Source of the DNA: Zygnema cylindricum
Taxonomy: Eukaryota > Streptophyta > Zygnematophyceae > Zygnematales > Zygnemataceae
DNA: 64,000 nt
Direction of reading: 5' to 3'
Assembly (NCBI GenBank): GCA_037447655.1
Contig: JBBHKE010001275.1
Span: 186,001 to 250,000 of the forward strand
In this document: positions 8,258-57,960 of the stretch, piece by piece
Numbering within the stretch: position 1 is the first letter of the stretch
Layout: each line of letters opens with the position of its first letter
Made by a program: the position numbers and the translations under genes
Notes under the pieces: generated by a model
What the model saw: the letters and a program-made list of their open reading frames with translations, nothing else
Databases searched by the model: none
What the model was told of the DNA's origin: nothing

Positions 8258-10399
8258 GAATTCGGGAAGGGCTATTTTGTTGAAAATAGGTGGAAACAGT
8301 GTAACAGTCAGTTGCGACCGTTCCACGCCATCTCCCACCTAGTACATTTCTGTACTTTTCGACGCAGATCCGCCTAGTTGGATTCATGTCTGAAACTAGA
8401 AGTCATTTCGTGTCCGCATTTATTCCCAATATATATAGACGGATGTGAATCTGGTATGTCATTGGAAATGTTTTTAACACACACTTTTCTAGCATACGAC
8501 ATACAAATTTTTGCAGTACGCCTGTTCAATTGGTACAAACGTACACAGTCTCACATGTTCGTAACATTTTTACCATTTTCATGAGCGCAGAAAAAAAAAA
8601 TCAGTTCCTGTAGTTTTTTTAAGGAATAAAAAAAAATCGCGATGGTTAAAACATCAAAGAATTAAACATGTGTTGTGTTCGGTAGATTTTTATCGCGTTC
8701 ATTCAACATGTATATCGTTTATCAGTTTTGGCGAGAGGGACCAATATAAAATTAAACATAGGTCCTTTATCATTGCCAACTTATCGTTGGGTGGAGTGTT
8801 TAAAAAAAAAACATACAACCCAATCTACACGTTGAAGAACATAACTACGTTACAAAGAAAGAAAGTAAGGAACCTACATATTAATTATAGTTAAGTGGCT
8901 ACCGGTACACAACACTATAAAACACGATTTAAATGGAAAATTGTTGACAACCATTCAAGGTTAGGAAATGAAAATCCCAAAAGGACTAAAAGTACTACCA
9001 AAACAAACCATACTGAAAGACTTAAGCTCAAAGTTATATAAAGCCTTAAGTTCAAAGTTATATAAACAAACGAGCAAATCCTACACTATAAGAGAACTAA
9101 AAACTACTCCAAACTCTAATTCCAAAAGAGAAAATGGAACCTTATGCCCCAACCTAAAATAATTTCGCATTAAGGTCAAAACTTTCAATATCATCTATAT
9201 GAGTCGGGTGGAGCGGATATAGGTCTCTCAGTCTTCAAAAATCAAACACCATCGTGCTCTGTCTAATAAGGGTTATGGCTTGGAAGTGCTTAAGGCAAAA
9301 GATATACATTTGTAGTAGAACGATAAAACGGGAGTTGTAAACGGGCTACAAAGTCTAACAACTTCAAAACAACGTTTAACAAAATTAAGTTAACAGTTGT
9401 AAAATGAAGAGCCAAAGATCCTAAAAATCTCCGAAGCGATCGTGTTGATTGAGTTTGGATGAGCCAATCACATCCTTTGCATGTCGTTGGATTGTGAAGC
9501 CTAAAATCATGATGCAATTTTGCACATGAGGAAACATGGGATCCCGTATGGTTCCTGAGAACTACGCTATAGAGTTATTTCCGCACCACGCAAAAACACA
9601 AGATCTACACGAGGGCCACGTATACCTCTAAATTGAGAAGGTTCCAAGAGTATACGTGACACCTTACGTTTGATTGTGTATCTAACTTTGTTATACACTC
9701 TAGGAATTGCGACCCAAACCATATCGTATGTTGTTGTATGTTTCCCACGGTGTGAGGAACCTAGCAAATGGACACCTTATTCATTTATAGACTGATTGGA
9801 AATGAAACGATGTTTATTTATGAGCGACGGGTGCGGCAAGCCGTGACTTAAGCGAAGTGCATACAAATATTGAGGAGAAAAGTCAAGAGAGATAAGTAGT
9901 GAGGGAAAAATTGGTGTATTAAACATGTTGTTGTTCATGACCTGGTCCGTGTTGCGATTGGTGCAATTGACGCCGAAGCGAGTTATATCGTTAAATAAAA
10001 GGTTTCTCATATACGCCTGCTTGACAACTAGTTTTGTGGTCTTCGAAGACTTCGTGTTGATTCGGTTTTCCTCCATCGGTGTAAGAGCACCTCGAGGGAT
10101 GTGGTTCTCATAGATCTGACCATATCCCACGTTTGTTTTTACGACATTTTGAAAGGGAGCATCATCTCGCAATGCATCGAATTCCAATGGCGAAATTACA
10201 TTTACCAAAACTGAACATATCACTTTGTTTTAATTTGCAGTTGATATTTTCGGCCTTTGGAGTATTCATTTGACGACTTTTTATGCAACTGTGCGCGGAA
10301 AACATATGAGTTGATGCGTCGGAGGAGTTGTCACTGAGCCTTTTCATTTTTTTTTACCGTTAGTGCTTGTCAATTGCCATCCAACGAGCGTAAGTTGCG
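8258..10399. other. Unassigned stretch between left arm and gypsy element
   Basis: No gene is supported here. The part 8580-9160 is AT-rich and has short direct repeats, for example a duplicated motif near 9020-9066. A 148-codon open frame on - at 9777-10223 shows no motif I recognise and has no clear continuation. Part of this tract could be a decayed 3' portion of the gypsy element that ends near 10400, but I see no RNase H or integrase motif. Confidence 0.5.
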
Positions 10400-11487
10400 A
10401 CTCTCTTTCGACAAATTAAGGTGGTGATGATTAAATCGTTGATATAGCAACAAGCAAACTTACACCCCCCCAAGACTAAGTCCATGACTTTCTGGAATAC
10501 CGCCGGTTAATTTTTAAGGCCAAAAGGCATAACTCCCCATTCCCAACATCAGTCACTTCCCCAAAATGCAGTCTTGCGTCGGTCCTTTTCGTTTATTTCG
10601 ATTTGGTTAAACCCCTGTGGGAGTACGATGTTGAAATATTTAGCTCCTCCTATATGATCGAAAATGTCCTTTGCCAACGGCATTGGATGTTGGTCCTGGA
10701 TTGTACGTGAATTTAGTTTTCGATAGTCCCCACACACTGAAATATTTAGCTCCCCCTACATGATCGAAAATGTCCTCTGCCAACGGCATTGGATGTTGGT
10801 CCTGGATTGTACGTGAATTTAGTTTTCGATAGTCCCCACACGCTGAAATATTTAGCTCCCCCTACATGATCGAAAATGTCCTCTGCTAACGGCATTGGAT
10901 GTCGGTCCTGGATTGTACGTGAATTTAGTTTTCGATAGTCCCCACACGCTGAAATATTTAGCTCCCCCTATATGATCGAAAATGTCCTCTGCCAACGGTA
11001 TTGGATGTCGGTCCTAGATTATACGTGAATTTAGTTTTCGATAGTCCCCACACATGCGACGTTTTGTAAAATTCCCCTCCGCGTCTGTTTTACAAGGCAT
11101 GACGGTAGGCGCCGCAAATGTGGAATCGGATCTATAAATCAAACCTGCCTCTTTTAATTCTGCGCATCTTTTGTCTACGAATTCCCATTCAGTTTCTGAT
11201 AGACGATGCTTGGGCTTAAATATGGGTCTGTCATCTTCTAGGTCAATAGACATTCTGTAACTGCTGTGTCCACCTAAGTCTTTCATGGAGAAAGCGAACG
11301 CGTCTACGTTTCGGTTTATGACTTCCTCTAAAAGTTTGTGTTCTGGTTTTGTTATTCCCGTTCCGAATATCCATGCCGGTTTTTCAGGCGTGTAGATGGT
11401 CATGGCTTCCATGGCCTGTACAAATGCTAGCTGCTCATCTACTATTAAGGAGTGTCCCGAGTCATACTCGACTGGGAGATGATGCAA
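10400..11487 (-). pseudogene. Ty3/gypsy reverse transcriptase fragment (pol)
   Basis: The - strand frame 11487-11014 reads a typical gypsy RT entry: about 80 residues of pre-RT sequence, then ELKEAGLIYRSDSTFAAPTV and RRMCGDYRKLNSR. A second frame, 10737-10549, continues with DQHPMPLAKDIFDHIGG and FNQIEINEKDRRKTAFWG. After a stop and a frame change the motif GVMPFGLKN is followed by YINDL at about 10430-10443, where active RTs have YVDDL or YIDDL. The second catalytic aspartate position is therefore Asn in this copy. The core is broken by a 106-bp tandem repeat. Nothing resembling RNase H or integrase follows, so the element is truncated just past the RT active site. It lies downstream of gag, protease and methyltransferase on the same strand. 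Confidence 0.85.
10632..11055 (-). repeat. 106-bp tandem repeat within RT coding sequence
   Basis: Four consecutive units start at about 10632, 10738, 10844 and 10950 and end near 11055. Each encodes the same RT stretch, beginning at CGDYRKLNS on the - strand. Because 106 is not a multiple of three, each extra unit shifts the reading frame. Units differ by only a few bases, so the expansion is recent relative to the decay of the element. Confidence 0.9.
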
Positions 11488-11756
11488 ACAATTTCCTGCA
11501 TTGTGCCAACTTCTAGATGGAAATACAACTGTCCTGTCTGGTGATGCCCGTACTCTGGTGATGCCCGTACTAGTACCTAAGATCTAGCAGCACTGTATGC
11601 TGGGAGAGACCAACTCATTTGACTAGGTTCTTAAAAATCATAAATAGTGTGATTTGTGTCAGACTTCGCGAGAAAGGAAAAAGAGCGAGTTGGAAACTTG
11701 TACCCCGAAGAGAAGGTGAGGATTTAGAAGTTGTGTGTTTAAATGGTGTATGCCCC

Positions 11757-13010
11757 CCCCGTGCTGGTTGAGACGGATAGTTCTGTGCGTATCGACCGTC
11801 TGCAAACCCTATGCCTAACAAAAATGATAGAGATTGGGGATCCTTGACACGACCAAGTAAGGTGCAGTGCTGCCTCTCGGTGACTCACTGGGCAGCAGTG
11901 GTTCCTGGGATGAAATGTAGAAGGTGTTCTCGCTCTGCAACAGTAGGTTATTCTAAGTTGCCTGTATGATTATTCTGAAACATGCCCGGTCCGTTATGTG
12001 AATATGCGTGAGAGTGTGGATATGCGACTAGTGTAGGAAATGCACGTAGTGGCTGGCTAGGGATGTTAAGACAAAATGCGGGAGGATAGTCTGTCTGGAT
12101 ACATGTATGGACCTTATAAAATGGAAAAAATGCATCTTGAATGGATAGGTTAGGTGGTCGGACAACGAGGTTAGCTTCTCCGAGTCGACCCATGTCCACC
12201 AAGTTAGTCCATTTGGAACAAACCCGATGGGCCAACGAACCGTGGCATGCGGCATCGATGATCAGTGGTGATCCAATTAATTATTCAATACCTTTGTAAT
12301 CTGAGAGAACCGTGGGTTGAGGGTTATTATATGCTGCGACATTTTCTAAGACGTATCCAAAAACACGGTTCAGTGTTTGGAAGAAGTTGATAAGACGCAC
12401 CACCTCAAAAAATAACTTAGTACGTGGATCTGCGAGACCTAAACCTTTCCGGCCCTAGACATACCTTGATATTCCCATCCAGCAAAAAGGAGATCGATTG
12501 GTTCTAATTCCATCAAATGGTGATTTCGTATTAGGTAGATATCATGTGGTAAAGTCGAATGCATGTCGTGAAAAGCTGGTTGGGGTAAAAGGTGTGGATA
12601 TTGTTCATGCAAGATTTGATAGTGATGGAACTGAGCGCGTCGAGCCAAAGGGTCAATGTCTACAGAATAATAATATTTAATTAAAAGGCCGTTACGAAGG
12701 CAAGCGAGAAGTGAATTACCGATTCCTGCGAAAAGGTCTAAGATAACGAGACAGTTCGAGTGAGGTTGCAAATTGACGGGTTTCCATTTAATAGGCAAAA
12801 ACTCGGAAGGATCCACTATTATAAGAGGTGGATCCGGAATACTAAATAAAGGAATTGGTATGGTAAATTTATATAGCCGGTCAAAATCTGACGAGTCAAT
12901 GGTAAATCCGGGTGCGGTGAATAGTTTTGGTACACCCGAGGGATCCGGTGAGATTTTGTCTGCTGTTAGGGATTCAAGGATATCAACGCCTATGGTAAGT
13001 GTTGCATAGG
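11757..13010 (-). pseudogene. C5-cytosine DNA methyltransferase domain inside gypsy pol
   Basis: The frame 13086-12439 shows C5 methyltransferase motif I (ILDLFAGIGN, about 12740-12710), a motif II-like YYSVDIDPLARR, and motif IV as DLLFAGWEYQGMSRAGK. The position normally held by the catalytic Cys (PCQ or ECQ) is Tyr, codon 12469-12471. After a frameshift near 12440 the reading continues with a conserved DPRTKLFF segment, motif VI LENV, then a motif VIII-like GSLAHRVCSKWTNL. A target-recognition-like region with FPTLVAYPHSHAY follows, then EREHLLHFIPGTTAA and VTERQHCTLLGR. In-frame stops lie near 12285, 11943 and 11887. It sits between the retropepsin and RT of one - strand element, so I read it as part of the retrotransposon polyprotein. 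This copy is dead. Confidence 0.85.
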
Positions 13011-13129
13011 TTGGCAAAACAATCGCAGAATGAGCCGTAGTAGACATGATTGCCGCGCCGGGATAAGAGGTAAGCAAACTTTGCATTCCGGAAAATTGTT
13101 TGATCTGTACGAAAATGTTTGATCTTGCA

Positions 13130-13456
13130 TATCAACCCCCCCCCCACTCGGAAAATAACGTCATGGCCGACCATGCATTCATAATCACTACACTTAGTGA
13201 CTAAGGCGTGAGCGTACATTTATGCAAAGTCTGTCTTAGACTGACATTGAAACTGAAAATAGACCGGTTGTTTTGTAATACCGAGGACCGGTTCTGTGGT
13301 ACTTGCGGAAGTCAATAGGCGAGTGGTGGTAGGTTGTAGTTTATCTGCTGTAAGGCCTATTTTTATGACAAATTCTGACCCAAGGATTATTGGTTTGGCG
13401 CCTGTGTCCATGAGAGGTAATGCTGGAGCAACCCCATTAACCGTGAACACGCCCAA
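13130..13456 (-). pseudogene. Retropepsin (aspartic protease) of the gypsy element
   Basis: The frame 13456-13220 contains ALPLMDTGAKPIILG, the usual DTGA active-site context of retroviral-type proteases. After a stop it continues with a DYECMVGHDVIF stretch, which resembles the conserved end of the domain. A poly-C tract at about 13135-13144 marks a frame disturbance. The domain lies directly between gag and the methyltransferase segment. Confidence 0.75.
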
Positions 13457-13485
13457 TTTGTTATCTAGAAAATTGATATAAGGAG

Positions 13486-14392
13486 TTAGGCTAGAACGTT
13501 CTTCAAGAGTAATGGCTTGAAGGGAGAGGTTATGACGATGGTTTTGTAGTGCTGTAACACAACTGTTGAAAGAGTCAGATCCACAGTTTTTTCGTTGACA
13601 TCCGGCTCGAGAAGAATGGTGGACAGAATTGATAAACGTTCTTTGACCTTATAAGTGTCCTGTATGCTTCGCTCCAGGATTGTTAATGCTTCGGCAGTGA
13701 TGCTAGAGGCAATTTCGAGAATAGGTGAGCGGGGTTCTTTAGCAAATGATAATGGGATACGAGTGTTAATGGGTTTAGACTCGCAATTATGATCGGGAGT
13801 CCCTCTAAACTGAGCTACCCGTTGTTGAACAGTTGACTCTTGAAAAGATCGCCCAGCAAAAAAGGGCATATGAACCACAGTTTGAGCCATTCCAGTTAAT
13901 TGCGGTTTCACCTGCCCCATAAGCGAGGCAAACTGCTCTTTCATCATGGCCGCCACAGTAGCCTGCATCTCGGCTTTCTCTCGGTCCCTCTTGCTAATTT
14001 TCGGAGCGTTGTTTTTCTCTACCCTTTTGGGTGGAGTGACCAATTTCGTCGAGCGAGCAAGTATACCGCCGTTTTTTATTTGATTTTGATAACCGAAATC
14101 GTGATTTTTAATGTGACATCGATGTATATAATGACCAGTTTGGTTAGAATGAGTACACGTGGCAGTCTTATCCAGAGAGCCGCGTGTGTCATGACCACTA
14201 TTACCACATCGGAAACAGATACGCACCCAGGGGTCGTTGGTAATGTTCCCATGGCTGGAGCTCTTGGAGGTCTCGGATTCGGCCATGGGTTGTGCGGATT
14301 AGGATTTGGATTCCGGTTTGCATTTGGAAGTTCTCTAGGAGAAGACTTAGGTCGCTCATGATCACCCCACCAAGGTGTGCATTTCATACCTT
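13486..14392 (-). pseudogene. Gag C-terminal part with CCHC zinc knuckle
   Basis: The - strand frame 14286-13486 carries a zinc-knuckle region (RICFRCGNSGHD, then CTHSNQTGHYIHRC) followed by a lysine-rich segment. The N-terminal stretch 14387-14250 in another frame is rich in Asn and Pro (NANRNPNPNPHNPWPNP), as in many gypsy gag linkers. It precedes the protease and belongs to the same element. Stops and frame changes make it non-functional. Confidence 0.75.
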
Positions 14393-14397: not shown

Positions 14398-15706
14398 TGT
14401 TGTCCATAGCCATTTTTAGCCATGGATTCACCCTCGGAAGCACCACAGACTACCCAAAAACAGCCTACTTTGAATCAACACAGAATTCTACAAAAAATAA
14501 CAAAACAAGCTGAAACTACATCAACAGATAGTATCTAGAATTTGGAATAACCTCACAAAGTTTGAGACAAATATAATAAACAGAGCGATCACATCATCTA
14601 GTCAAAGTTGCAGAAAAATAGTTTGCCAGAACTTTGATAAAACAGACTAACTTCACAATGAATTAAAACACAGACCAGGCACACAATAGGCCTACAAATC
14701 TGGACAATAATAAAAATACAAAGAGGAACACACATGCAGAATTTCAGATAATTCTGCCAACAGATCTGAGAGTAATCCTCAGATAAAAATTACCAAAAAA
14801 CACCATAAACAGTTTTTGGTCCAAAAGTTCCTATGACTAAAAATGACTAAGTCCTACAAATATACACGAGCTCATTACTGAGTGTACGGAGGCATACCAG
14901 CCGTACGCAATCTACTAGCTACCTCTATTAATGTTAATAAACCTGAATAATTCGAGGTATGTCAAAAAGAGTAAATCTACACTAATAACTAATACACATA
15001 AAGACAAACCATTGTTGTAAATATTTACAAAGTACTCACAATCTTACAAAATCGTATGCTCAGTCATGCTGAGTCACTCAATGGAACTCCTCGAATTTCG
15101 TTAAACAATCCGGGACGTCCAAAATAAACATCGTGTGATTGACGCGATTTCGCGTCTCTACTACTTGAAAAATATCGACTGCCTATATCCGCCGTCCGTC
15201 GATCTTATTCGGCACCCTTGATGGCGCGCCACGTGGTCATAAAAATCCAAACGAAATCCACGCGAGTCGTCAAATATCCCACGACGTCGCGAAGAGAATT
15301 TAGTCATTCACGTCCACTTGTTAAAAATAATAATCGTACAACCGAAATCATTTTCGTACCGCAGCCGCGTCCTTTGCAATAAATGCGGCAAATAAAGTAC
15401 ATGTCATTTTTCATAAACGTCGCTTGTCGCATATAAATTACATTTGTTTAGATTATATGTTCTGTACCGGCGAGGTACATTTGGTAAACTTCACATCGGA
15501 TCGCGTCGCGATCCGCCGTCCATTTCTTAACGCATTCCGCGCCACTCAATTACTACCTCACGTCCCTTTAATTTTACTCGTACATTTACTCCCCCAATCC
15601 GCAAATCCATTCGAACCACCACATTACTTTTGATAATATATTACGCACGTGAAACGTCGCGTGCGCACAAAATGTGGAATATCCAGAAAATACTCAAATA
15701 TCCACA
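14398..15706 (-). repeat. Probable solo LTR related to element E
   Basis: On the - strand this segment starts TGTGGATATT and ends GGACAACA, as LTRs do (TG...CA). Its first about 600 bases clearly resemble the LTRs of element E at 36006-37462 and 38300-39653, including the GTGCGCACGCGACG and GGACGGCGGATCGCGA blocks. It interrupts the gag of the methyltransferase-carrying gypsy element. No primer-binding site follows it and no matching TSD is visible, so the exact ends are uncertain. Confidence 0.6.
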
Positions 15707-16111
15707 TCGTACCGTACGGCGTATTGTGCAGCCTGCTTGAAAGTAAATTTGAGGCCATATGCCTCAGTCAAATGGCTTTGAATGAAACGTCGAGATTGGG
15801 TGGGAAATTGCCCCACAAATTTCTGAACTGCCTTTGCGTCTGACATGAGATCTGGCAGTGCTTCACGTAATGTTTCCATACGTGCTCGCAATGCCGGAGC
15901 GGTTTCGCCTGGGCGACGTTCAAAATTCATTAGTTCTTTAACTTGATCAGGATTCTGCATTCGGTACTCTTCCTATAATAAACTAAAGACAAACAAAATC
16001 GGATCCCGTAACGGAACCAGCATAACTGCTCGAGCAAAAATTGATGCCCGAGCTGCCATCGGGAATTGATGAGGAACCTCAAGAATTTCAGGTGAACTTT
16101 CGTTACCTGCA
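15707..16111 (-). pseudogene. Gypsy gag, middle part
   Basis: The frame 15960-15694 reads MNFERRPGETAPALRARM and FKQAAQYAVRYDV, typical of a helical gag capsid region. A preceding frame (16111-15990) reads PHQFPMAARASIFARAV. It is bounded on the left by the solo LTR and on the right by a truncated copia LTR. I infer that it continues the gag start found at 28337-28620, on the far side of the copia array. Confidence 0.6.
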
Positions 16112-16577
16112 AATGCAACTCTCAGACCTCTATAGGACCTCAGAGTAAGCAGCTCACGCGAAGCCCCTATGATAACCCTGACCCCTTTGTCTTTTAGCAC
16201 GAATAACCGCCACCCTGGCAAACAAAAACTCTGACCACCTTCACCCCTGTGAAGGCAAGACTCCTCTGAGTCGATGGCAAAAAGAATCTCTGAATTTGCT
16301 CCCCTGAGCAGTAAGTTATGGAGGGTCAAAGTTGACCTTTTGTACAGAAGCTCTCTGGGAGAGAGGGTCCTATCTACCAATTTTTCTAAATCCTATCTCC
16401 CTCTAAAACTCTATCTACTGGTGTACGACACCAATCATATTACACTGCCGTACACAAAAGTACTGTTGCCGATGTACTTTATTACGGATATTATACGACA
16501 TGGCCTAAATGTCGACACATCTTATATCCAGATTCGGTCGCGTAATCCTCGGAGATGTCGCGATACAACAGAATCGT
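16112..16577 (-). repeat. Truncated copia-family LTR
   Basis: This is the terminal 466 bp (U5 side) of the same LTR found complete at 16578-17645. It breaks off at about 16577, directly against the end of the next LTR, and its continuation is not in the window. Its free end abuts gypsy gag without a recognisable TSD. Confidence 0.8.
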
Positions 16578-17645
16578 GCCATGCAACTCTGAGACCTCCA
16601 TAAGACCTCAGAGTAAGCAGCTCACACAAAGCCTCTAGGATAACCCTGACCCCTTTGTCTTTCAACACGAATAACTGCCACCCTAGCAAACAAAAACACT
16701 GACCACCTTCACTCCCGTGAAGAGAAGCCTCCTCTGAGTCGATAGCAAAAAAAATCTCTAAATTTGCTCCCCTGAGCAGTAAGTTATGGAGGGTCAAAGT
16801 TGACCTTTTGTACAGAACTCTCTAGGAGAGACGGTCCTATCTACCAAATTTTCTAAGTCCTATCTCTCTCTAAAAATCTATCTACTGGTGTATGGCACCA
16901 ATCAAATTACACTGTCGTACATAAAAGTACAGCTACCGGTGTACTTTATGTACGGATATTGTAGGACATGGCTTAAATGTCGACACATGTCATATCCAGA
17001 TTCGGTCCCATAATCCCCGGAGATGCCGCGATCCAACGTAATCGTGCCACATGTCATCCGATGTGGCAATGACCACAAACCGCCGAGAATCTCTTCCGCG
17101 ATCTGGACTTTCTTTTTAGTCGTCCGATTGAATGCATATTTCAATCGTAGCCGTCATAAATGCTTGTGCGGTATTTCTTTCGTAAAAGGAACAAAATGCG
17201 CGGTACTTTTTTCTTATTCATTCCGAAATCCGTACGTTTATATAACTGTATCTATGTAACCGTAAACATCCGCCCTTAAATGAATTTTCCTACGGGTTAA
17301 CATTTAAATAAATATCAAACCCAATAGCATGTATTGTAACTTCTAGACTTAATGGTTAAGGCTACGTGCTACCGCCGTTCTAACGACCTACAAGTACCAG
17401 GATCAAATCCTGGTTCCGACATACTCCTTTTAGCAAATAAACCTACCTATCTGTAAATCAACTAATCTATTACCCGTAAACCTCTAGATAGCCTAGGTAG
17501 CTATGGCTCTAGCGTCCTCTCCAACTTCTCAATGAATGCAACAAGTGTGGGAGTTGGAGAGAGAAGTTAGAGGCAGACTGCCCCGGCTTCTTTCTATATT
17601 CCAATTTAGACTTAGAAAATAAAAAAATAACCATCGATTTCTACA
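16578..17645 (-). repeat. Copia LTR (left of array)
   Basis: It starts TGTAGAAATCG on the - strand at 17645 and ends in GTTGCA at 16578. It contains the LTR hairpin at 17517-17561 and the tRNA-like module at about 17348-17420. It is slightly more diverged than the other two LTRs. Confidence 0.85.
17517..17561. other. Conserved LTR hairpin
   Basis: A perfect 10-bp inverted repeat (CTCTCCAACT with AGTTGGAGAG) encloses a 25-base loop. Counterparts lie at 22931-22975, 28208-28252, 29796-29835, 34913-34956 and about 43740-43781. The loop keeps the series TGCAA and AAGTGTGG, while the stem sequence differs in the diverged copy yet still pairs. Confidence 0.7.
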
Positions 17646-17674
17646 CTACCTATATTTTCTAGTCAATATTTAAT

Positions 17675-20600
17675 TCAGGCCACACTTCTCCCGCAGAAAA
17701 TTTGTTTAGGGGAAGGCACAGGTTTGGTCATCCTACCTGCTACCATCTCACTATCTGGTCTGTACTCTAAACTGATTACTTTGTTTTCTACTTTCTCTCT
17801 AACAAAGCTGAGTCTAATGTCCATGTGTTTAGCTTTAAAATGATGTTTAGGATTGGCAGAAATAGCGATTGCTGCCAGATTATCACAAAAAAAATTCTGC
17901 ACACCACTCTTAAGGTGACCAAGCTCACCAAGCAAAGACTTGACCCACATCAATTCTTTTACAGCAAAGCAAGAGGCCATATACTCAGCCTCCATAGTGG
18001 ACCAAGCAATAACCTTTTGTTGTTTGTTACTCCAACAACAAGCCCCATCACGCACATATAATACATATCCAAAAGTACATCTCCTTATCGGAGCATCACG
18101 ATAACTGGCATCACTCCAAGTAGTGATGTCAGTATTCTCCCCACCCAAAATGCAACCATAGATCCCTAGTTCCTATCAAATATCTAAGGACTCTCTTAGC
18201 TACCTCCCAATCCTTTTTAGTGGGAGCATTTAGACTTCTACTCAGCACTCCTACAGCTGCAGCTAAATCCAACCGGGTAAAATTCATAAAATAGATTAAG
18301 CTTCACACTATTTGTCTGTAAGGAATAGTCTGCATGAACTTTTGTTCTTTAGGACTTAATTCCTCTTCTAAGACTAAGACTCTTTCTTCCTCACTCCCCT
18401 CACTTCCCTTCTTTAACTCCATTGGAGTTGTACAACTATTAGTTTTATCCATCTGAAATATTTCGAGCATGTTCCCTATTTCTTCCTTTTGAGTCAATCT
18501 TATAATATTTCTTTCTCGGTCTCTTTCTACTTGAATTCCCAAAATATAGTTTGCTTCCCCCATATCCTTCATTTCAAATCTCCCCTTAAGATCGGATTTC
18601 AGTTTATTAATGTTTTTCATTGATTTACTTAAAACAAGCAAATCATCAACATAAATTGCTATAAATATAATACCTTCCTCATCTTCAAAAACATAGATTG
18701 AGTGATCTGAGCTGATCCGGATATATCCCAGACCGGTAAGAAACTCATCAAGTTTCTAATTCCACTGTCGAGGCGCCTGTTTCAAACCGTAAAGGGATTT
18801 TATCAGCCGACTTACCTAACTGTCCTCTCCTTCCCCCGCAAATCCTTCGGGTTGTCGAATGAAGATCTCCTCTTCCAATTCTCCATACAAAAAAGTTGTC
18901 TTGATGTCCATCTGCTGCACCTCCATGTCTTCCGCTGCTGCTAGACTGAGAAGTATGCGGACGGAGGGAAATCTGACAACCGGGGCAAAGGTTTCCTCGT
19001 AGTCGATTCCTTCTTTCTATGTAAATCCTTTTGCCACTAATCGGGCTTTGTAACGCTCAATGGTGTTATTTGGGTTTAGTTTTAATTTGAAAACCCACTT
19101 ACAACCGATTGGTTTTTGGTTAGGTGGACAGTCCACCAGCTCCCAAGTATCGGCTGCTATAATTGAGGCCATCTCCTCATTGATGGTTGTCTTCCACCGA
19201 TTCCTTTTTGGACAAGTCATCGCCTCTCCATAAGTTTGAGGTTCATCTTGATGAGATAGTTTTGTTACCTTGTTATTAACCTGTTTTTCTTGCAATCTTT
19301 TGCTACTTCTCCTTCCTCCCTCAAAATTTGTGGCCGGAATAGATAGTTCTTGTGGGTTTTTTCGAACAATCTCGGCTTCTCCCCTATCCCTTGATTCCGA
19401 ATAAATTTCCACCACGTCTTCCGCTTCGTGTAGAGTTGTCACTGTAGTTTCCGCAGCCGAGTCCTTCTCGGTCTGATTTTTACCTGCAATAATGTCATCT
19501 TCTCTAAAACCTGGATAGTTAGGAAGCTCAAAGTCATCGGAATTTTCTGACTCAAATCTAATTTTAACTGACTTTGTATACTTGAAGGGATCCATAGACT
19601 TTCCTTCATCCATAACTACTAGATGTTTTACTAAGATTATATCTTCCCTTTTTAGATCGTAAACTCTATATCCTTTAACATTCTCATCTTATCCTAATAA
19701 GTATCCCGGTTTTCCTTTAGGATCTAGCTTCCAATTAGACCGATCTGTATCTAGACTGAATACTTAACTGCCGAAAACCTTTGAGTGAGATATGTCTGGT
19801 TTTCGGCCGGTCTATCTCTCATAAGGTGTTTGATCTTTTATAGCTGAGGTAAGAACTCTATTTTTGAGGTAATTAGCGCAGGTCATTGCTTCTGCCCAAA
19901 ACCTTTTTCCTATCTTCTTATCCGACAACATACTTCTAGCAGTATCACTCAGTGTCTTATTTAATCGTTCAGCTACCCCATTTTGTTCCGGGTTTTCTGG
20001 AACTGTCTTTTGGTGTTGAACTCCGTCTTCCCTCAAAAAATCCTCAAACTGGTTAGAAGTATACTCTCCACCATTGTCACTCCTTACTCTTTTGATTGGA
20101 GTTTTATGGAGTTTTTCGCTCCATGCTTTATATTGTCTAAAAGAATCCTGAGCTTCTGACTTGTTTTTCCAAAAAATACACCCTGGAATACAAAGACCAA
20201 TCATCAGTGATAGTCATCATAAATCTCTTCCCCCCCGGTGAGGGCACTTTGGCCGGTCCCCAAATATCTGTGTGTACTAAATCTAGAATTTTTTCTCCCC
20301 TATAGGTGGTTGTTTTGGGAAAGGGCAATCTGTGTGCTTTACCTTGAGCACATCCACTACAATCACTTAGATTCTCACTCTCACTGAACTAAATTCCTTC
20401 CACCACTCCCATCTTTTTCATCTCTCTTAGCTTATCTAGATTCACATGCCCAAGCCTCTTATGCCACATCATTATATCATGAACACCAGCATATTAAAGT
20501 TTCTTCTTTTCATTGCTTAAAATCAGCCTAAACATCCTTTGGCTACCTTTTTCAGCGGTGAAATAAACTTCCTCCTCAAAACTAGCAGTAAAGACTCCTT

Positions 20601-21970
20601 TCCTAGTGCTAGTATCAAAACCCTTATCATCTAATACAGACGTAGAGATGAGGTTTTTGTTCAGCTCCGGAATAAACAATACATCAGAGAATGTAACTAT
20701 GGATGTCTTTCCTTCTACGAACACTTTCAGATCTACCGATCCTACAAGAGTAGTAGTGACTATCCTTCATCCCCATACTCTATCTCTACGGTGGGAATCT
20801 TTCTTATCTTAGTGAACACGTATTTATCCTTACACATATGCATGGAGGCACCTGAATTTACAATTCACCCTGCCTCACCTTTCAATCCACCGAAAGCACA
20901 TTTCTGCTTTCGTGGAATTTCTACCTCATTTGTCGCTTCTAACTCCTCATCCAATAGGAGCTCATCGTCCTCGTCTTCGGATTCCACCTCATATACCTGT
21001 GTCACAAGGGCCTTTTTCTTTCCTCTCCGAGTTCTATCGGTCTGTCCCTCCTTTAACCGAAGCTCGGTTAGCTTAGTGCACTCCGCCATATAGTGCCCTG
21101 GTTTTTTACAGAAATGACATAAAGCCTCGGGAGCCCTTGGTCCGAACTCGTCGGTCTGATGTTTTTGCTCCCCCCTTCCGTAATTTCTGACCGGTCTCCG
21201 GGAATCCTTGTTCCTCCAATCAGTCCCAGCTGCCAAGGCTTGCCCACTCTTTCCTCCCCTTCGGATCTCAATTGTATTCTCCCGAACGGAAATCATTACG
21301 ATCAAAGAGTTCCATATCCACCTTGAGTCCGGCAAGTCCTACACACAGTTGACTATGTTCTCGAACTCATCGGGTAACTTCATCAGTAGACAGTTAACCT
21401 TTTCTCTTTCACTAAAATCTTTTCCATCACTCTCTAGCTCCATGAAAAGTGTAGCAAGCTCATTGCAAAAATCCAACATCTTCCCCCCTTTCTATACATA
21501 CTCTTTAACTTTTTGATCAACCAACTATTTTTGCTGAATCATACCACTTTGGTACATCTCTATGAGAGCCATCCAAAGATTGGATGCCCTTTCTACCTGC
21601 AAATGAGGACATGCAAGTCCTTCAGTAAGATGGCGGAGGATGAAGTGCTTTGCCGCCATATTGTTGAAATCCTAGGTATCAGTATCATTCTCCCCGTTCC
21701 TCGGAATAGGTGACATCAATGCCGAACCAGTTGCTATTGGTGTGGTCGTCTCATTCTCCTTTCCTTTTTCCACCACCTCTCCTTCCTTTGTCTCCTCCGT
21801 TGAAGATGGATCTGCATCTCTAGTGAGTCTCCCTCGTGTAAACCATGGAGGTATCGCAAGACTCGATGGACGCCTCACCCGTCCACTCAGTATTCCCCAG
21901 ATGCGTTTCTCAAATAGAGCTCATGTCATCATACTTTCCTTGTATATGAAGCCAGCTCCATTGAATATGG
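17675..21970 (-). pseudogene. Copia gag-pol, copy A
   Basis: Ordered domains can be followed on the - strand despite stops and frameshifts. A gag remnant comes first, then the CCHC knuckle CHFCKKPGHYMAEC (about 21125-21080), protease VDSGASMHMC, and a GAG-pre-integrase region with MMWHKRLGHVNLDKL. Integrase follows with HTDIWGP, RSDNGGEYTSNQF and NGVAERLNKT, then RT beginning [20 protein letters not shown] with IYVDDLLVLSK. RNase H has TWSDASYRDA, STMEAEYMA and HHFKAKHMDIRLSFVREK. In-frame stops lie at 20389-20391 and 19812-19814, among others. The order gag-PR-INT-RT-RH defines Ty1/copia. Confidence 0.9.
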
Positions 21971-21982
21971 GCACCGTAGATG

Positions 21983-21996
21983 GTGGGCCCATAACC
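21983..21996 (-). promoter_or_regulatory. Primer-binding site (half-tRNA type), copy A
   Basis: Directly after the LTR end the - strand reads GGTTATGGGCCCAC. This is complementary to the anticodon arm of plant initiator tRNA-Met, not to the 3' end of a tRNA. The canonical plant PBS beginning TGGTATCAGAGC is absent. Confidence 0.8.
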
Positions 21997-23059
21997 TGCA
22001 ACTCTGAGACCTCCATAGGACCTCAAAGTAAGCAACTCACACGAAGCCTCTAGGATAACCCTGACCCCTTTGTCTTTCAGCACGAATAATTGCCACCCTG
22101 ACAAACAAAAACTCTGACCACCTTCACCTCGTGAAGGTAAGACTCCCCTGAGTTGATAGCAAAAATAATCTCTGAATTTGCTCCTCTGAGCAGTAAGTTA
22201 TGGAGGGTCAAAGTTGACCTTTTGTACAGAAGCTCTTTGGGAGAGAGGGTCCTATCTACCAATTTTTCTAAGTCCTATCTCTCTCTAAAACTCTATCTAT
22301 TGGTGAACGACATCAATCATATTACACTGCCGTACACAAAAGTACAGCTGCCAGTGTACTTTATGTAAGGATATTGTAGGACATGGCCTAAATGTCGACA
22401 CATGTCATATTCGGATTCGGTCTCGTAATCCCCGGAGATGTCGCGATCCAAGGGAATCGTGCCACGTGTCATCCGATGTGGCGATGACCACAAACCGCCG
22501 AGAATCTCTTTCGCGATCTCGACTTTCTTTTCGGCCGTCCGATTGAATGCAAATTTCAATCGTAGCCGTGATAAATGCTTGTGCGGTATTTGTTTCATAA
22601 AAGAAACAAAATGCGCAGTACACGTTTCTTATCCATACCAAAATCTGTACTTTTACATAACTGTATCTATGTATCCGTAAAGTTCCGCCATTAAAGTAAT
22701 TTTCCTACTTAGCAACATTTAAATAAATATCAAACCTATTAGTATATAACTTTGTGCCTATACTTAACGGATAAGGCTACTGGCTACCGACTTCTGACGG
22801 TCGGCAGGTACCAAGATCAAATCCTGGTTCCGACATACTACTTTTAGCAAATAAACCTACCTATCCGTATATCAACTAATTTATTTCCCGTAAACCTTTG
22901 GATAGCCTAGGTAGCCATGGCTCTAGCTTCCTCTCCAACTTCTCAGTGACTGCAACAAGTGTGGGAGTTGGAGGGAGAAGTTAGAGGCAGACTGCCTCGG
23001 CTTCTTTCTATATTCCAATTTAGACCTAGAAAATAATAAAAGAACCATCGATTTCTACA
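21997..23059 (-). repeat. Copia LTR (middle of array)
   Basis: This 1063-bp LTR has TG/CA ends and is shared by internal regions A and B. It is nearly identical to the right LTR, pointing to a recent exchange or duplication. The tRNA-like module is at about 22756-22836. Confidence 0.85.
22756..22836 (+). other. tRNA-like module (T-arm / B-box) in LTR
   Basis: Read on +, opposite to the element, this stretch resembles a tRNA 3' half. A T-arm-like hairpin has stem CCAAG with CCTGG around ATCAAAT. It is preceded by a short stem (CCGAC with GTCGG) and a D-arm-like GGATAAGGCTA. Counterparts are at about 17348-17420, 28033-28110, 29655-29725 and, on -, 43864-43945. In the last, the loop is the canonical TTCAAAT and the B-box reads GGTTCAAATCT. 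No pairing 5' acceptor strand is visible, so it is not a functional tRNA gene. Confidence 0.5.
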
Positions 23060-23061
23060 CT

Positions 23062-26000
23062 CTAATCAATCTTTAATTTCAGACCACACTTCTCCCTACA
23101 TAAAATTAGCTTAGGGGAAGACACAGGTTTGGTCAACATATCTGCTACCATCTCACTATGTGGTCGGTACTCTAAACTGATTATTTTGTTTTCTACTTTC
23201 TCTCTAACAAAGTTTAATCTAATGTCCATGTGTTTAGCTTTAAAATGATGTTTAGGATTGGCAGAAATAGCGATTCCTACCTGATTATCACAAAAAAAAT
23301 TATACACACCACTCTTAAGGTGACCAAGCTCACCAAGCAAAGACTTGACCCACATCAATTTTTTTACAATAGAGCAAGAGGCCATATACTCAGCCTCCAT
23401 GGTGGACTGAGCAATAACCTTTTGTTGTTTGCTACTCCAACAACTAGCCCCATCACCGACATATAATACATATCTATAAGTACATCTCCTCATCGGAGCA
23501 TCACGATAACTGGCATCACTCCAAGTAGTGATGTCAGTATTCTCCCCACCCAAATGCAACCATAGATCCCTAGTTCGTATCAAATATCTAATGACTCTCT
23601 TAGCTACCTCCCAATCCTTCTTAGTGGGAGCATTTAGACTTCTACTCAGCACTCCTACAGCTGCAGCTAAATCCAACCGGGTAAAATTCATAAAATAGAT
23701 TAAGTTTCCCACTACTTGCCCGTAAGGAATAGTCTGCATGAACTTTTGTTCTTCAAGACTTAATTCCTCGTCTAAGACTATGACTCTTTCTTCCTCACTC
23801 CTCTCACTTCCTTTTTTTAACTCCATTGGAGTTGTACAACTATTAGTTTTATCCATCTGAAATATTTCGAGCATGTTCCCTATTTCTTCCTTTTGAGTCA
23901 ATCTTATAATATTTCTTTTTCGGTCTCTTTCTACTTGAATTCCCAAAATATATTTTGCTTCCCCCATATCTTTCATTTCAAATCTCCCTTTAAGATCGGA
24001 TTTCAGTTTATTAATTTTTTCATTGATTTACTTAAAACAAGCAAATCATCAACATAAATTATTATTAATATAATACCTTCCTCATCTTCAAAAACATAGA
24101 TTGAGTGATCTGAGCTGATCCGGATATATCCCAGACCAGTAAGAAACTCATCAAGTTTCTAATTACACTGTCGAGGCGCCTGTTTCAAACCGTAAAGGGA
24201 TTTAATCAGCCGGCATACCTAACTCTCCTCTCCTTCCTCCACAAATCCTTCGGTTTGTCGCATGAAGATCTCCTCTTCCAATTCTCTGTACAAAAAGGTT
24301 GTCTTGATGTCCATCTGGTGCACCTCCGTGTCTTCCGCTGGTGCTAGATTGAGAAGTATGTGGACGGAGGGAAATCTGACGACCGGGGCAAAGGTTTCCT
24401 CGAAGTCGATACCTTCTTTCTGTGTAAATCCTTTTGCCACTAATCGAGCTTTGTAACGCTCAATGGTGTTACTTGGGTTTAGTTTTAATTTGAATACCCA
24501 CTTACAACCGATTGGTTTTTGGTTAGGTGGACAGTCCACCAGCTCCCAAGTATCGGCTGCTATAATTGAGGCCATCTCCTCATTGATGGTTGTCTTCCAC
24601 CGATTCCTTTTTGGACAAGTCAACGCCTCTCCATAAGTTTGAGGTTCATCTTGATGAGATAGTTTTGTTACCTTGTTATTAACTTGTTTTTCTTGCAATC
24701 TTTTGCTACTTCTCCTTCCCCCCTCAAAATTTGTGGCCGGAATAGATGGTTCTCGTCGGTTCTTTCGAACAATCTCGGCTTCTCCCCTATCCCTTGATTC
24801 TGAATCAATTTCCACCACGTCTTCCGCTTCGGGTAGAGTTGTCACTGGAGTTGTGTAGCCGAGTCCTTTTCGGTCTTATTTGTACATGCAAGAATGTCAT
24901 CTTCTCTAAAACTTGGATAGTTAGGAAGCTCAAAGTCATCGGAATTTTCTGACTCAAATCTAATTTTAACTGACTTTGTATACTTGAAGGGATCCATAGA
25001 CTTTCCTTCATCCATAACTACTAGATGTTTTACTAAGATTATATCTTCCCTTTTTAGATCGTAAACTCTATATCCTTTAACATTCTCATCTTATCCTAAT
25101 AAGTATCCCGGTTTTCCTTTAGGATCTAGCTTCCAATTAGACCGATCTGTATCTAGACTGAATACTTAACTGCCGAAAACCTTTGAGTGAGATATGTCTG
25201 GTTTTCGGCCGGTCTATCTCTCATAAGGTGTTTGATCTTTTATAGCTGAGGTAAGAACTCTATTTTTGAGGTAATTAGCGCAGGTCATTGCTTCTGCCCA
25301 AAACCTTTTTCCTATCTTCTTATCCGACAACATACTTCTAGCAGTATCACTCAGTGTCTTATTTAATCGTTCAGCTACCCCATTTTGTTCCGGGTTTTCT
25401 GGAACTGTCTTTTGGTGTTGAACTCCGTCTTCCCTCAGAAAATCCTCAAACTAGTTAGAAGTATTGGAGTTTCATGGAGTTTTTCGCTCCAGGCTTTATT
25501 TTGTCTAAAACAATCTTGAGCTTCTGACTAGTTTTTCAAAAAATACACCCTGGAATACAAAGACCAATCATCAGTGATAGTCATCATCAATCTCTTCCCC
25601 CCCGATGAGGGCACTTTGGCCGGTCCCTAAATATCTGTGTGTACTAAATCTAGAATTTTTTCTCCCCTATAGGTGGTTGTTTTGGGAAAGGGCAATCTGT
25701 GTGCTTTACCTTGAGCACATCCACTACAATCACTTAGATTCTCACTCTCACTGAACTAAATTCCTTCCACCACTCCCATCTTTTTCATCTCTCTTAGCTT
25801 ATCTAGATTCACATGCCCAAGCCTCTTATGCCACATCATTATATCATGAACACCAGCATAATAAAGTTTCTTCTTTCCATTGCTTAAAATCAGCCTAAAC
25901 ATCCTTTGGCTACCTTTTTCAGCGGTGAAATAAACTTCCTCCTCAAAACTAGCAGTAAAGACTCCTTTCCTAGTGCTAGTATCAAAACCCTTATCATCTA

Positions 26001-27250: not shown

Positions 27251-27259
27251 CCCTAGATG

Positions 27260-27273
27260 GTGGGCCTATAACC
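27260..27273 (-). promoter_or_regulatory. Primer-binding site (half-tRNA type), copy B
   Basis: The - strand reads GGTTATAGGCCCAC beside the LTR. It is the same initiator tRNA-Met anticodon-arm match as in A, with one base changed. Confidence 0.7.
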
Positions 27274-28336: not shown

Positions 28337-28620
28337 TCAGAGTCATAAACTGCGGGTACCGGGGCTTGGAAAAGAATTCAGGGATGTCAGTTATAACCAG
28401 AGAAACAGAATATGCGGGTGCCATTTCTGTCATGGCACAGATTTCCGTATATTTCAGTGTATAGAAAGATAGGGCAGATCCCCTAAGGTACCGCCCAAGT
28501 AACAAAAAAGTAACCTGTAAATCATTACGTTCTTGATATCGGAATGTGAGGTCGCGCATCTCGATATAAAAAAACATGCGAAAGTGTGACAAGGACATCG
28601 TGTCCTTGATACCTAAAAAA
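28337..28620 (-). pseudogene. Gypsy gag, N-terminal part
   Basis: The frame 28598-28332 reads MSLSHFRMFFYIEMRDLTFR, QVTFLLLGRYLRGSALSFYT and a region ending near PRYPQFMTL. The LRGSA-type block is typical of the Ty3/gypsy gag capsid N-terminal region. It stops exactly where the copia LTR begins at 28336. I infer that it belongs with the gag parts at 15707-16111 and 13486-14392. Confidence 0.55.
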
Positions 28621-28969
28621 CAAAACTAGTTTTTACCTCCTCTGGTGTCCATGGACGAGGCCATGTCCATGCAAAAGGGACCGGAATAAGTGTGTATAGT
28701 TCCACCCAATGGAAAAAACAAAGGCGGTAGATGAAACTCTTTGTGCTCCATTGCCCACAGAAATCGCAGATCCAAAAGAAGTTAATCTAGGTAGTGCCGA
28801 CTCTAAGTTGATATAAACTTAAATGACTGACCCCTTGACAATCAGAAACCCATTATAGTTTCACCCATGTGAAATAAGACTTTCTGTGTGCTCAGTTCCA
28901 CCACAGAATGCAAAGTTAGAATATGAGTTTTGGACACATTCACCCACTTTGATTTTCCCTTAGAAATCC
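28621..28969 (-). other. Probable gypsy leader or gag start, unassigned
   Basis: This lies between the gag frame and a diverged LTR. Several frames read gag-like residues (for example FCMDMASSMDTRGG on -), but none is continuous. No primer-binding site could be fixed. Confidence 0.3.
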
Positions 28970-29921: not shown

Positions 29922-30864
29922 GTATATTCAGATCTCGAATATCAAGGGAGTCTAGGTCCAAGTCTTCCCCCCAGCTGCGAGAAGAGGACGAAGAGTTAGA
30001 CGAGATTGATCTATAGATGGTGGTAATACCAGATCTAGCGCCAGATGAACCTGTAAGTTGAGTCTAAACATTATGATCGGGTGACTGAAAAGGAGGGAAG
30101 CCGACACGGATGGAATCCTTGGCCGATCCACGATAAAGGTTTGAGCTTCTAGTTGTACTAGCCAGAAACTGGAAATTGTTCCAGTCTGTTGGCATGTAAA
30201 CCAACAGTTTTCCTATCCGAATGCAACTAGATGCCAAACCCCACTCAAGGCCAGTGTGCAAATGCCCACCGCCAGATCTACAAATCAACGACGCAGGTAG
30301 TATCTCAATCCACGCAAACAGGCACCACCCCTACGATTCGATCACCGGGGTTAGTCTAATCGCGAAACCCCGCTAATAAGGCCGTTCACGGCCAGATCTA
30401 ATAGACCACAATAAGTCACTTCAAGCCACACCAAGAAGAAACATGTCGCCTATACAAGGCCACTTGTGGCCAAATTTAATAAAGCGGGAAACTATTCAAG
30501 GCCCACAAGGCAAGATGTAGTAAAAGAGGAAATTGTCCAGGATCCCAAAGGCCAAATCTATTAAAATAAGAAATTATTCAGGGCCCGCAAGGTCAGATGT
30601 AAACAGGCAGCCCCTATCGAAGACCAACACGTTCAGATTTAGAGAAAATGTGACAACAATGTCTTATGCGGAAAGGAAGGCACAGCCTTCGGTCGGATCC
30701 TAACCCCTCTAGGTGACTGCACTTAACAACCTATCACGCGCCTACAACCACAAGGACCCGACTACTCACCTGGAGCGATTTGTAAGGTCTCCCACTGATG
30801 CTCCAACCTCCCTCGAATTTTGAATTGTCAAGAAAAGGTCACAACTCAAAATACCAAAGTAGTT
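29922..30864. other. Unassigned flank with degenerate minisatellite
   Basis: No gene is supported. A + frame ending at 30016 reads SPQLREEDEELDEIDL before a stop and could be the tail of an old polyprotein. From about 30440 to 30600 a period of about 42 bp is visible (GGCC..AAGGCAAGATGTA-like units), repeated four to five times with many differences. The last five bases before element C are its TSD. Confidence 0.4.
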
Positions 30865-30869
30865 AGTAG

Positions 30870-35654: not shown

Positions 35655-35668
35655 GGTTATGGGCCCAC
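35655..35668 (+). promoter_or_regulatory. Primer-binding site (half-tRNA type), element D
   Basis: GGTTATGGGCCCAC directly follows the LTR. It is complementary to the initiator tRNA-Met anticodon arm. Confidence 0.8.
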
Positions 35669-37462: not shown

Positions 37463-37477
37463 GGTTATGGGCCCACA
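37463..37477 (+). promoter_or_regulatory. Primer-binding site (half-tRNA type), element E
   Basis: GGTTATGGGCCCACA adjoins the LTR end, the same unusual primer match as in the copia families. Confidence 0.8.
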
Positions 37478-47406: not shown

Positions 47407-47411
47407 AGTAG

Positions 47412-47491
47412 CCTGTTAGGGTACGCGTATCAGCGCTATGCCACGCTCTACCCGTCTATAAAACAACAATAATTTGATGTTATAATTCGTG

Positions 47492-47561
<70 letters not shown>

Positions 47562-47723
47562 AGGTTTTTTTTCATTTTTGAAGTTCTAAGATTTTAAGTT
47601 TTCTATATGTTCTGAGTGAGTTAATCCGATAGGCAGAAAAAAGGGAAAACAATACCGGACACTTCAGCAATTTCAAACTCAAAAACAAACTAGACAACAA
47701 ACGAAATGAAAACCAAGCATAAC

Positions 47724-47761: not shown

Positions 47762-48821
47762 TTTTCAATTTCACAAACAAATTAAAAATAAACTAGACAG
47801 AAAACAAAAAAATTGACAAAAGTAATAAAAAAATTAGAAATAAAGCAAATTAAAGCACGGGAATATTTGCGACAATAGCCACTAAGCCCTGAAGTCCTTC
47901 AATATTCCCTACAGGAGTTCCAACCAGCGTACCAGAACCCTTCCTTAACTGGACAAAGGAGCCGAGATAGCCGGTGTTTCTCTAGGCCAGAATGGGGGAG
48001 AGCTAGATTTCAAAGCCAGCAATCTAACAGCAAGAAAACACCGAATCCACACAACACAATTCGTACACCACGACAAGTAGAACACATCCATGAGGTAAAC
48101 CTTGCAGGCAGGCTTGCGCCGGTAGATTAGGTAAGGACTTGGTACAAAAGAAAATATGGAGCTCAGAGACAGCCACTAGCATAGACCATGGGTCTGAAAG
48201 AAAACCTTAACTCAAAACTAGACTGTCTCTAAATATTTAGGTGAAACCCTTTGTCTCTAAATATTTAGGTGAAACCCAAACTATCACAGAGTTCGACAAA
48301 TCCCGAGAATAATGCTTGCCAGAAAACGACAAACTTCCAATGTTGGATTCCCATGCTTTAATTTGCAACTGTTCCTAAAACGCCAAATGGAATTTATCCT
48401 ATGCTTTCGCTAACCGTACAGCTACACTAATTCTTATATGTCTTTGAGCATGCACGTTTCTATGTGCAAACGCTGCCGGTTTCTAGAGACGACCGCTGCG
48501 TGGCCGCCTCAGGACGCCACACGTCGGAATAAAAACTCTCCCAAAGCTAAACAAATAATGCATGAACCTCCGAGGGTTCATGACTTTAGAAATCTGTCAG
48601 GTTTGGAGCCGTTTGAGTTCCTAACATCTGATGTCGTACCGCAGTCCCGTTCCACGCCGATTTCACATTGTGACGTACATGAATGTAATACGGTCTCTGA
48701 TTCGTGTGTACCTTGCACTGTACACGTAGTGTCACGTCACACGTACGTCAATTAGAATAAGATCGAGTAAAAATACTTGCCGACGCCTTACGGCATGACA
48801 GTAGACGTGGTTTATTATGAT
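47412..48821. other. Right flank of element C with AT microsatellites
   Basis: No gene is supported. Two (AT)n tracts lie at about 47494-47559 and 47726-47757. A unit of about 28 bp containing TCTCTAAATATTTAGGTGAA is duplicated in tandem at 48225-48282. A 105-codon frame at 48438-48755 has no recognisable motif. Confidence 0.6.

Positions 48822-49582: not shown

Positions 49583-57960
<8,378 letters not shown>

What the first reader, a model, noticed from the sequence alone, without database searches (positions are those of the whole stretch)
10400..14392. DNA methyltransferase carried inside a Ty3/gypsy retrotransposon of a land plant
Seen: on one strand, in order, CCHC gag, DTGA protease, C5 methyltransferase motifs (DLFAGIG, the motif IV AGW.YQG context, LENV, and a C-terminal PGTTAA...TERQ..LLGR block) and gypsy RT. 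Known: retrotransposons that captured cytosine methyltransferases have been reported in dinoflagellates and a charophyte alga. Inference: a related element exists or existed in this land-plant genome and may have methylated its own DNA or disturbed host silencing.
Basis: partly seen in the sequence, partly recalled or inferred. Interest (0 to 1): 0.88.

Follow-up and report, generated by a model that had tools for sequence, protein, structure and literature searches.

The report
Retrotransposon with methyltransferase and PHD finger
At least 150 places in this green-lineage genome match the DNA-methyltransferase part of a retrotransposon whose best-preserved copies also carry a PHD finger, so the element likely marks its own DNA with the same chemical tag that hosts use to silence such elements.

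Summary
The window holds a dead copy (frameshifts; Tyr at the catalytic Cys) whose pieces run co-linearly from 48800 to 10378 on the minus strand, split by nested insertions. The same genome gives 152 matches to its methyltransferase (MTase) piece. One copy has identical repeats and one 2395-aa frame: CCHC gag, protease, Dnmt3-like MTase, RT, RNase H, integrase, PHD finger. The MTase is closest to DNMT3A/B by sequence and predicted fold, shows low dN/dS, and is linked to RT. The five copies with both ends placed have split repeats A-coding-B-A-B, known from DIRS elements, yet TG...CA ends with 4-bp target duplications (exact in four), as a DDE integrase makes. The published precedent is KnitGypsy-Dnmt3 of a charophyte alga (PMC5890265). 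New here: a second, large family, the PHD finger, the target duplications. Host light-harvesting proteins are closest to moss and other land plants, but a land-plant host is not proven. Function is untested.

The parts
47864..48800 (-). 5' terminal repeat A of the window copy, starting TGTCATGCCG
   Evidence: blastn to repeat A of copy C1344, 78% over 966 columns; start letters read
47407..47659 (-). piece after repeat A, before gag
   Evidence: blastn to C1344, 72%
30416..30869 (-). next piece before gag, about 16.5 kb away from the previous one
   Evidence: blastn to C1344, 80%
29923..30273 (-). gag, N-terminal piece
   Evidence: tblastn to the gag-protease part of C1344, 49% over 120 columns
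28338..28754 (-). gag, second piece, about 1.2 kb further
   Evidence: tblastn 66%, blastn 84%
15703..16110 (-). gag, third piece, about 12 kb further
   Evidence: tblastn 88% over 136 columns
13552..14289 (-). gag CCHC zinc knuckle and following region, about 1.3 kb further
   Evidence: tblastn 78%; zf-CCHC E 0.7 in the window copy, 0.0023 in the L002 copy
13133..13561 (-). aspartic protease with DTGA
   Evidence: tblastn 84%; Asp_protease_2 E 0.00094
12445..13047 (-). linker and N-terminal part of the Dnmt3-like methyltransferase: motif I at 12718-12738, motif IV at 12463-12483 with Tyr in place of the catalytic Cys
   Evidence: compared with preserved copies
11672..12475 (-). C-terminal part of the methyltransferase in another frame (motifs VI, VIII and the TERQ..LLGR block) and linker
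   Evidence: tblastn 79% over 268 columns
10930..11553 (-). reverse transcriptase, N-terminal part
   Evidence: tblastn 81% over 208 columns
10378..10737 (-). reverse transcriptase, continuing; no RNase H, integrase, PHD or 3' repeats of the family matched elsewhere in the window
   Evidence: tblastn 74% over 121 columns
10632..11053 (-). local tandem repeat of a 106-base RT stretch in this copy
   Evidence: the repeat finder family D4

Best explanation
The window holds a dead copy of a high-copy Ty3/gypsy-type retrotransposon whose gag-pol frame carries a Dnmt3-like cytosine methyltransferase domain between protease and reverse transcriptase and, in preserved copies, a PHD finger behind the integrase; the methyltransferase would likely methylate the element's own cDNA, and the PHD finger is predicted to lead the integrase to silent chromatin. 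Shown by sequence: domain order, the match to DNMT3A/B, conserved catalytic residues, low dN/dS, A-coding-B-A-B repeats, TG...CA ends and 4-bp target duplications. Inferred: (1) reverse transcription gives an ordinary linear DNA whose long terminal repeat is B-GC-A, because a purine tract lies right before B; (2) this becomes a two-repeat circle, whose A/B joint is what the A2/B2 border looks like; (3) the DDE integrase opens the circle not at that joint but at the near-palindrome GCACGACA-GC-TGTCATGC inside one repeat and inserts it, which gives exactly A-coding-B-A-B with TG...CA ends and 4-bp duplications; (4) the methyltransferase marks this cDNA with 5-methylcytosine before or at insertion, so that the new copy enters the genome already looking like heterochromatin, is kept so by the host's CG/CHG maintenance and does little harm; (5) the PHD finger takes the place that a chromodomain has in chromoviruses.
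Against: No activity, expression or methylome data. Motif IV reads EC instead of the usual PC (recalled) in 19 of 19 copies, which could weaken or alter activity; in the published yeast assay no de novo methylation was seen for the KnitGypsy-Dnmt3 enzyme, which its authors call inconclusive (PMC5890265, passage). CG/CHG decay is not special to this element, and a Dnmt3-type enzyme would not by itself explain CHG. The circle route is deduced from ends only, in five copies picked because they showed flanking direct repeats. Of the other copies C1407 shows B1-A2-B2 but no A1 within the fetched DNA, C2577 shows A1 and B1 but no A2 or B2 match, C82 and C2053 match neither repeat query, C46 was not tested. 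Histone binding of the PHD finger is guessed from resemblance; it was not found in C2053, is partial in C82, and C232 lacks one zinc-binding Cys. MTase and integrase may be cut apart by the protease. dN/dS for MTase rests on few unsaturated pairs, and one stop-free copy (L018) has lost motif VI Glu.
Confidence: 0.55

Rival explanations
1. The MTase domain is kept for a role other than marking DNA, for example as a nucleic-acid-binding or structural part of the particle, or to methylate RNA or RNA:DNA hybrids during reverse transcription.
For: EC in place of PC at motif IV in 19 of 19 copies; KnitGypsy-Dnmt3 gave no methylation in yeast, called inconclusive (PMC5890265); the CG/CHG footprint is shared with copia-like elements.
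Against: Motif I, the catalytic Cys, the motif VI Glu and the motif VIII Arg are each kept in 15 to 19 of 19 copies, which a purely structural role would not need. EC is also the commoner form among aligned relatives: 9 of 13 (P0001-P0011, P0014, P0015) read EC, 4 read PC, so it is an old variant rather than a sign of decay here.
Confidence: 0.25
2. The enzyme acts on the host: methyltransferase released from the polyprotein disturbs or recruits host methylation at genes or rival elements.
For: A free Dnmt3-type domain in many copies could act in trans; PMC5890265 discusses accidental activity on the host genome (passage).
Against: No data here; the footprint in copia-like elements looks like ordinary CG/CHG silencing.
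Confidence: 0.12
3. The A-B-A-B ends arise not from a two-repeat circle opened at an internal site but from an unusual priming and strand-transfer scheme that makes linear DNA with those ends directly.
For: The repeats and ends are compatible with any scheme that makes linear DNA running from A1 to B2; no circle was observed. No site beginning TGG, as a conventional tRNA primer site would (recalled), follows repeat A directly in the five copies.
Against: The purine tract sits before B, not before A, in 5 of 5 copies, and A2/B2 is the joint that a two-repeat circle would have.
Confidence: 0.35
4. The MTase is a host gene fragment that landed beside a retrotransposon by chance.
For: In the window alone the domain is broken and weak.
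Against: Same order in many copies, one frame of 2395 aa; 34 of the 57 best-ranking RT matches linked, plus 4 of 5 further ones fetched.
Confidence: 0.01

Closest known systems
KnitGypsy-Dnmt3 (Klebsormidium nitens, de Mendoza et al. 2018, PMC5890265; passages and section 9 seen)
   Same: Dnmt3-type, not DRM-rearranged, MTase inside the Pol frame of a gypsy-type element; intronless; repeat order of DIRS with gypsy domains (figure legend); purifying selection on the MTase.
   Different: PHD does not occur in its main text (0 occurrences) and the passages seen give no ends or target duplications for it; the figure itself is not held. Host is a charophyte alga, with fewer such copies than Symbiodinium.
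SymbioDIRS-Dnmt3 (dinoflagellates, same paper)
   Same: Dnmt3 in Pol; A-coding-B-A-B repeats.
   Different: Tyrosine recombinase instead of a DDE integrase; DIRS, not gypsy.
Retrotransposon-embedded DNMT3s noted in Mol Biol Evol 2025 (PMC12344493, passages)
   Same: States that some DNMT3 members sit in retrotransposons of streptophytes and dinoflagellates.
   Different: Names LTR Copia and DIRS families and cites the 2018 paper; gypsy does not occur in its main text.
Closterium sp. NIES-54 protein P0007 and metagenome proteins P0001, P0003
   Same: Protease (Pfam in P0003; DTGA motif in P0007) followed by a related MTase in one protein; P0001/P0003 group with this genome's MTases (94/99).
   Different: 33% (P0007) and 47-48% identity; RT, integrase and PHD parts not seen in these proteins.
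Chromoviruses (gypsy elements with a chromodomain after the integrase; recalled)
   Same: A chromatin-reader-like module at the end of Pol.
   Different: PHD finger instead of a chromodomain; split repeats.

Membership tests
Ty3/gypsy (Metaviridae-like) retrotransposon | gag, protease, RT, RNase H, DDE integrase in this order | tested here: met
   Pfam on copy C1344; gag knuckle and protease below their cut-offs
Ty3/gypsy (Metaviridae-like) retrotransposon | TG...CA ends and short target duplications | tested here: met
   exact 4-bp duplications in 4 of 5 copies
Ty3/gypsy (Metaviridae-like) retrotransposon | complete identical repeats at both ends | tested here: not met
   repeats are split, A ... 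B-A-B, in 5 of 5 copies; hence 'gypsy-type', not a regular member
Ty3/gypsy (Metaviridae-like) retrotransposon | RT falls in the gypsy clade of a tree | not tested
   no RT tree was built
KnitGypsy-Dnmt3 kind | Dnmt3-type MTase in Pol of a gypsy-type element | tested here: met
KnitGypsy-Dnmt3 kind | DIRS-like repeat order | tested here: met
KnitGypsy-Dnmt3 kind | direct sequence kinship with the Klebsormidium element | not testable with these tools
   no Klebsormidium row among the 19 hits, which takes only proteins of 0.55-1.75 times the query length
DIRS | tyrosine recombinase | tested here: not met
   rve and H2C2 integrase instead, no phage-integrase domain at E <= 1 in C1344
DIRS | A-coding-B-A-B split direct repeats | tested here: met
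DIRS | no target duplication (recalled) | tested here: not met
   4-bp duplications
Dnmt3 catalytic domain | motif order I-IV-VI-VIII-X and best match DNMT3 | tested here: met
Dnmt3 catalytic domain | N-terminal ADD/PWWP domains as in animals | tested here: not met
   no such Pfam hit at E <= 1 in C1344
DRM methyltransferase | circularly permuted motif order | tested here: not met
   unpermuted order; DRM chains match one block only
Chromovirus | chromodomain behind the integrase | tested here: not met
   PHD finger there, no chromodomain at E <= 1 in C1344

The most novel reading that the evidence does not exclude
A land-plant or near-land-plant gypsy-type element that carries both a DNA-methylation writer and a histone reader in one polyprotein, methylates its own cDNA, and uses a DDE integrase to insert a two-repeat circle at an internal attachment site, a route once proposed and dropped for retroviruses (recalled): a third way of making a retroelement beside regular LTR and DIRS elements, established in streptophytes at high copy number.
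Probability: 0.3. Interest if true: 0.88.

Novelty: new variant of a known kind. Interest (0 to 1): 0.72.

Why it matters
A parasite that carries the enzyme class used to silence it makes a standing question testable: whether self-methylation helps a transposon persist. Here there are copies with unbroken frames and near-identical repeats, so methylation and circles can be looked for directly. The ends (split repeats plus 4-bp target duplications) give a concrete test of whether a DDE integrase can use a circular substrate. [quoted passage not shown] a firm land-plant host would contradict that.

Tried and rejected
Homologues with the window piece: none, which I put down to decay; the L002 copy gave 19. 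IMG/VR scan: 80 of 387 confirmed relatives kept, identities 23-36%; their surroundings were not examined. Self-methylation footprint: found CG/CHG decay (codon constraint not controlled) but rejected as evidence for self-methylation after the copia control. MTase-less sister elements: none found among the RT matches looked at, apart from C1601 with nothing in 3.0 kb; 18 of 23 unlinked ones were not examined, 94 lower-ranking RT matches were not linked, and both lists are capped at about 150 scored candidates of 1198 and 2446. Host identity: the matK family search found nothing, but its control rang nowhere; LTP_2 (expected in land plants, recalled) gave 0 matches from 2 first-look candidates, again with a silent control, which counts somewhat against a land plant; NAC (PF02365), dirigent (PF03018) and the host DNMT3 search did not complete. 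The glycosyltransferase gene of the window (58694-60361) has 34 homologues at E <= 1e-20; the eukaryotes named among them are green algae, at best 53% identity, the best hit (88%) is unnamed, and no land plant is named; this too does not favour a land plant. Print: the listings of searches of the held open-access library showed no report of a gypsy element with such a PHD finger or of an MTase-bearing gypsy element in a land plant; I opened passages of only six papers (PMC5890265, PMC6338049, PMC12344493, PMC10952607, PMC10005731, PMC12589708), and most subscription journals are not held.
Full report
What is in the window. The minus strand holds gag CCHC, DTGA protease, C5-methyltransferase motifs and gypsy-type RT in that order. 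Judged alone the MTase part is weak (Pfam E 0.2; no homologue at E <= 0.01). The reason is decay: frameshifts, and Tyr at the catalytic Cys of motif IV. Comparison with a preserved copy shows that the same element starts with repeat A at 48800 and runs to 10378, its co-linear pieces separated by about 16.5, 1.2, 12 and 1.3 kb of other sequence, among it what I read as copia elements. RNase H, integrase, PHD and the 3' repeats of the family were not matched in the window.

The family. The genome (352.8 Mb, 2689 contigs) gave 152 matches to the window's MTase piece, itself included; 150 of 1198 first-look candidates were scored, so this is a lower bound. Copy C1344 has 931-bp direct repeats that are 100% identical and one open frame of 2395 aa. 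Pfam finds zf-CCHC (E 0.0017) and aspartic protease (0.0042) below their cut-offs, and above them DNA_methylase (7e-12), RVT_1 (8e-30), RNase H (1e-34), Integrase_H2C2 (2e-15), rve (1e-11) and a C-terminal PHD finger (3e-10). C1915 and C829 have repeats 99.5% and 99.6% identical. The repeats suggest recent movement; transcription or movement was not observed.

Linkage. Of the 57 best-ranking of 151 reported RT matches (all 84% or more) 34 have a listed MTase match within 4 kb upstream. Of the 23 others I fetched five: four carry the MTase, one (C1601) shows only the last stretch before RT in 3.0 kb. No MTase-free branch was seen, but the lists are capped and 18 of the 23 were not looked at.

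Ends and repeats. Ten contig pairs were fetched. Five with direct repeats around the MTase were analysed, and in all five (C1344, C1915, C829, C232, C449) the order is A-coding-B-A-B. Of the rest C1407 shows B-A-B downstream but no A1 in the fetched DNA, C2577 shows A1 and B1 only, C82 and C2053 match neither repeat query (nor does C449, whose repeats were found by self-comparison), and C46 was not tested. The outer ends of the five read TGTCATGC...GCACGACA and are flanked by TTGG, CCCT, AAGG and CCAT on both sides in four; in the fifth, whose A repeats are 80% alike, by TCAT and GCAT. The B1/A2 border reads GCACGACA-GC-TGTCATGC in all five, and a run of at least eight G lies within two bases of B1 in all five. 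The figure legend of PMC5890265 gives the same repeat order for KnitGypsy-Dnmt3 (section 9). I infer that reverse transcription makes a DNA with repeats B-GC-A, that it closes into a two-repeat circle, and that the integrase opens it at the inner site; no circle has been seen.

PHD finger. It ends the frame, full or nearly so in length, in 7 of 9 copies compared, is partial in C82 and not found in C2053; C232 lacks one of the zinc-binding Cys. It resembles PHF12, Lid/KDM5, BAZ2, WSTF, PHF21A and ATXR5 fingers, several of which bind H3 unmodified at K4 (recalled). In 3 of 5 copies (C1344, C1915, C829) the insertion lies between direct repeats of another element, as targeting to silent chromatin would give, but so would chance in a repeat-rich genome.

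Methylation footprint. Against L002, the 13 copies of 89-95% identity have C-to-T changes 1.4 to 4.2 times as often at CG as at CHH sites and 1.8 to 4.1 times as often at CHG, mostly two to three times, and in all 13 more often than the reverse change at these sites; over all 25 copies the rates are 0.129 (CG), 0.130 (CHG), 0.086 (CHH), reverse 0.090, 0.070, 0.082. Copia-like copies in the same window show a like excess (0.065, 0.066, 0.029 in the closest pair). So the host most likely methylates CG and CHG in repeats generally.

Relatives. Nineteen proteins at E <= 0.01: mostly unnamed metagenome proteins, one Closterium sp. NIES-54 protein, and a few bacterial-type enzymes. P0003 and P0007 have protease and MTase in one protein. 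In a tree of 21 rows this genome's four MTases are one group (100/100), joined with P0001/P0003 (94/99, just short of the starred level); the places of P0007 and of the DNMT3A fragment are unsure.

Host. Apart from a multi-domain protein (9vfj) whose single domains score lower, a major LHC protein is closest to 8htu_U and 7xqp_a, which are from the moss Physcomitrium patens (passages), ahead of seed-plant and green-algal chains; another is, with the same exception, closest to 5xnl_3 and 7oui_2, which I recall as LHCB3. Against a land plant stand the empty LTP_2 search (control silent) and the algal kin of a window gene. I leave land plant or streptophyte alga open.

Verdict. The finding is real and stronger than its author could know: a large family with some copies that look young. 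As a kind it is known since 2018 from Klebsormidium; the PHD finger, the target duplications on split repeats and the second, large family are the new part as far as my searches reach. The mechanism is inferred.

Noticed in passing
G000 contigs C519, C2590, C1116, C610, C1077, C889: Runs of chlorophyll a/b-binding-type genes close together on the same contigs, some with short ELIP-like matches (88 matches in all; 'ELIP-like' is my guess).
   Followed up: no
window 58694-60361 (+): A 555-aa open frame with glycosyltransferase family 2; the eukaryotes named among its homologues are green algae (at best 53%), the best hit (88%) is unnamed.
   Followed up: partly
window 50387-50737 (-): C-terminal piece of a GH1 glycosidase.
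   Followed up: no
window 16245-29306 and 35050-44691: Several copia-like copies nested in the MTase element, neighbouring ones largely 90-99% alike.
   Followed up: partly
L021/L022, L027/L028, L029/L030: Three of five MTase elements with placed ends sit between direct repeats (84-89% alike) of another element.
   Followed up: no
G000:C32:45344-45946 and 49839-50441: Two equally scoring MTase matches 4.5 kb apart on one contig, maybe a local duplication.
   Followed up: no
A1, rows P0001-P0011, P0014, P0015: Nine of 13 related MTases share the Glu-Cys form of motif IV, so the change is old in this group.
   Followed up: partly
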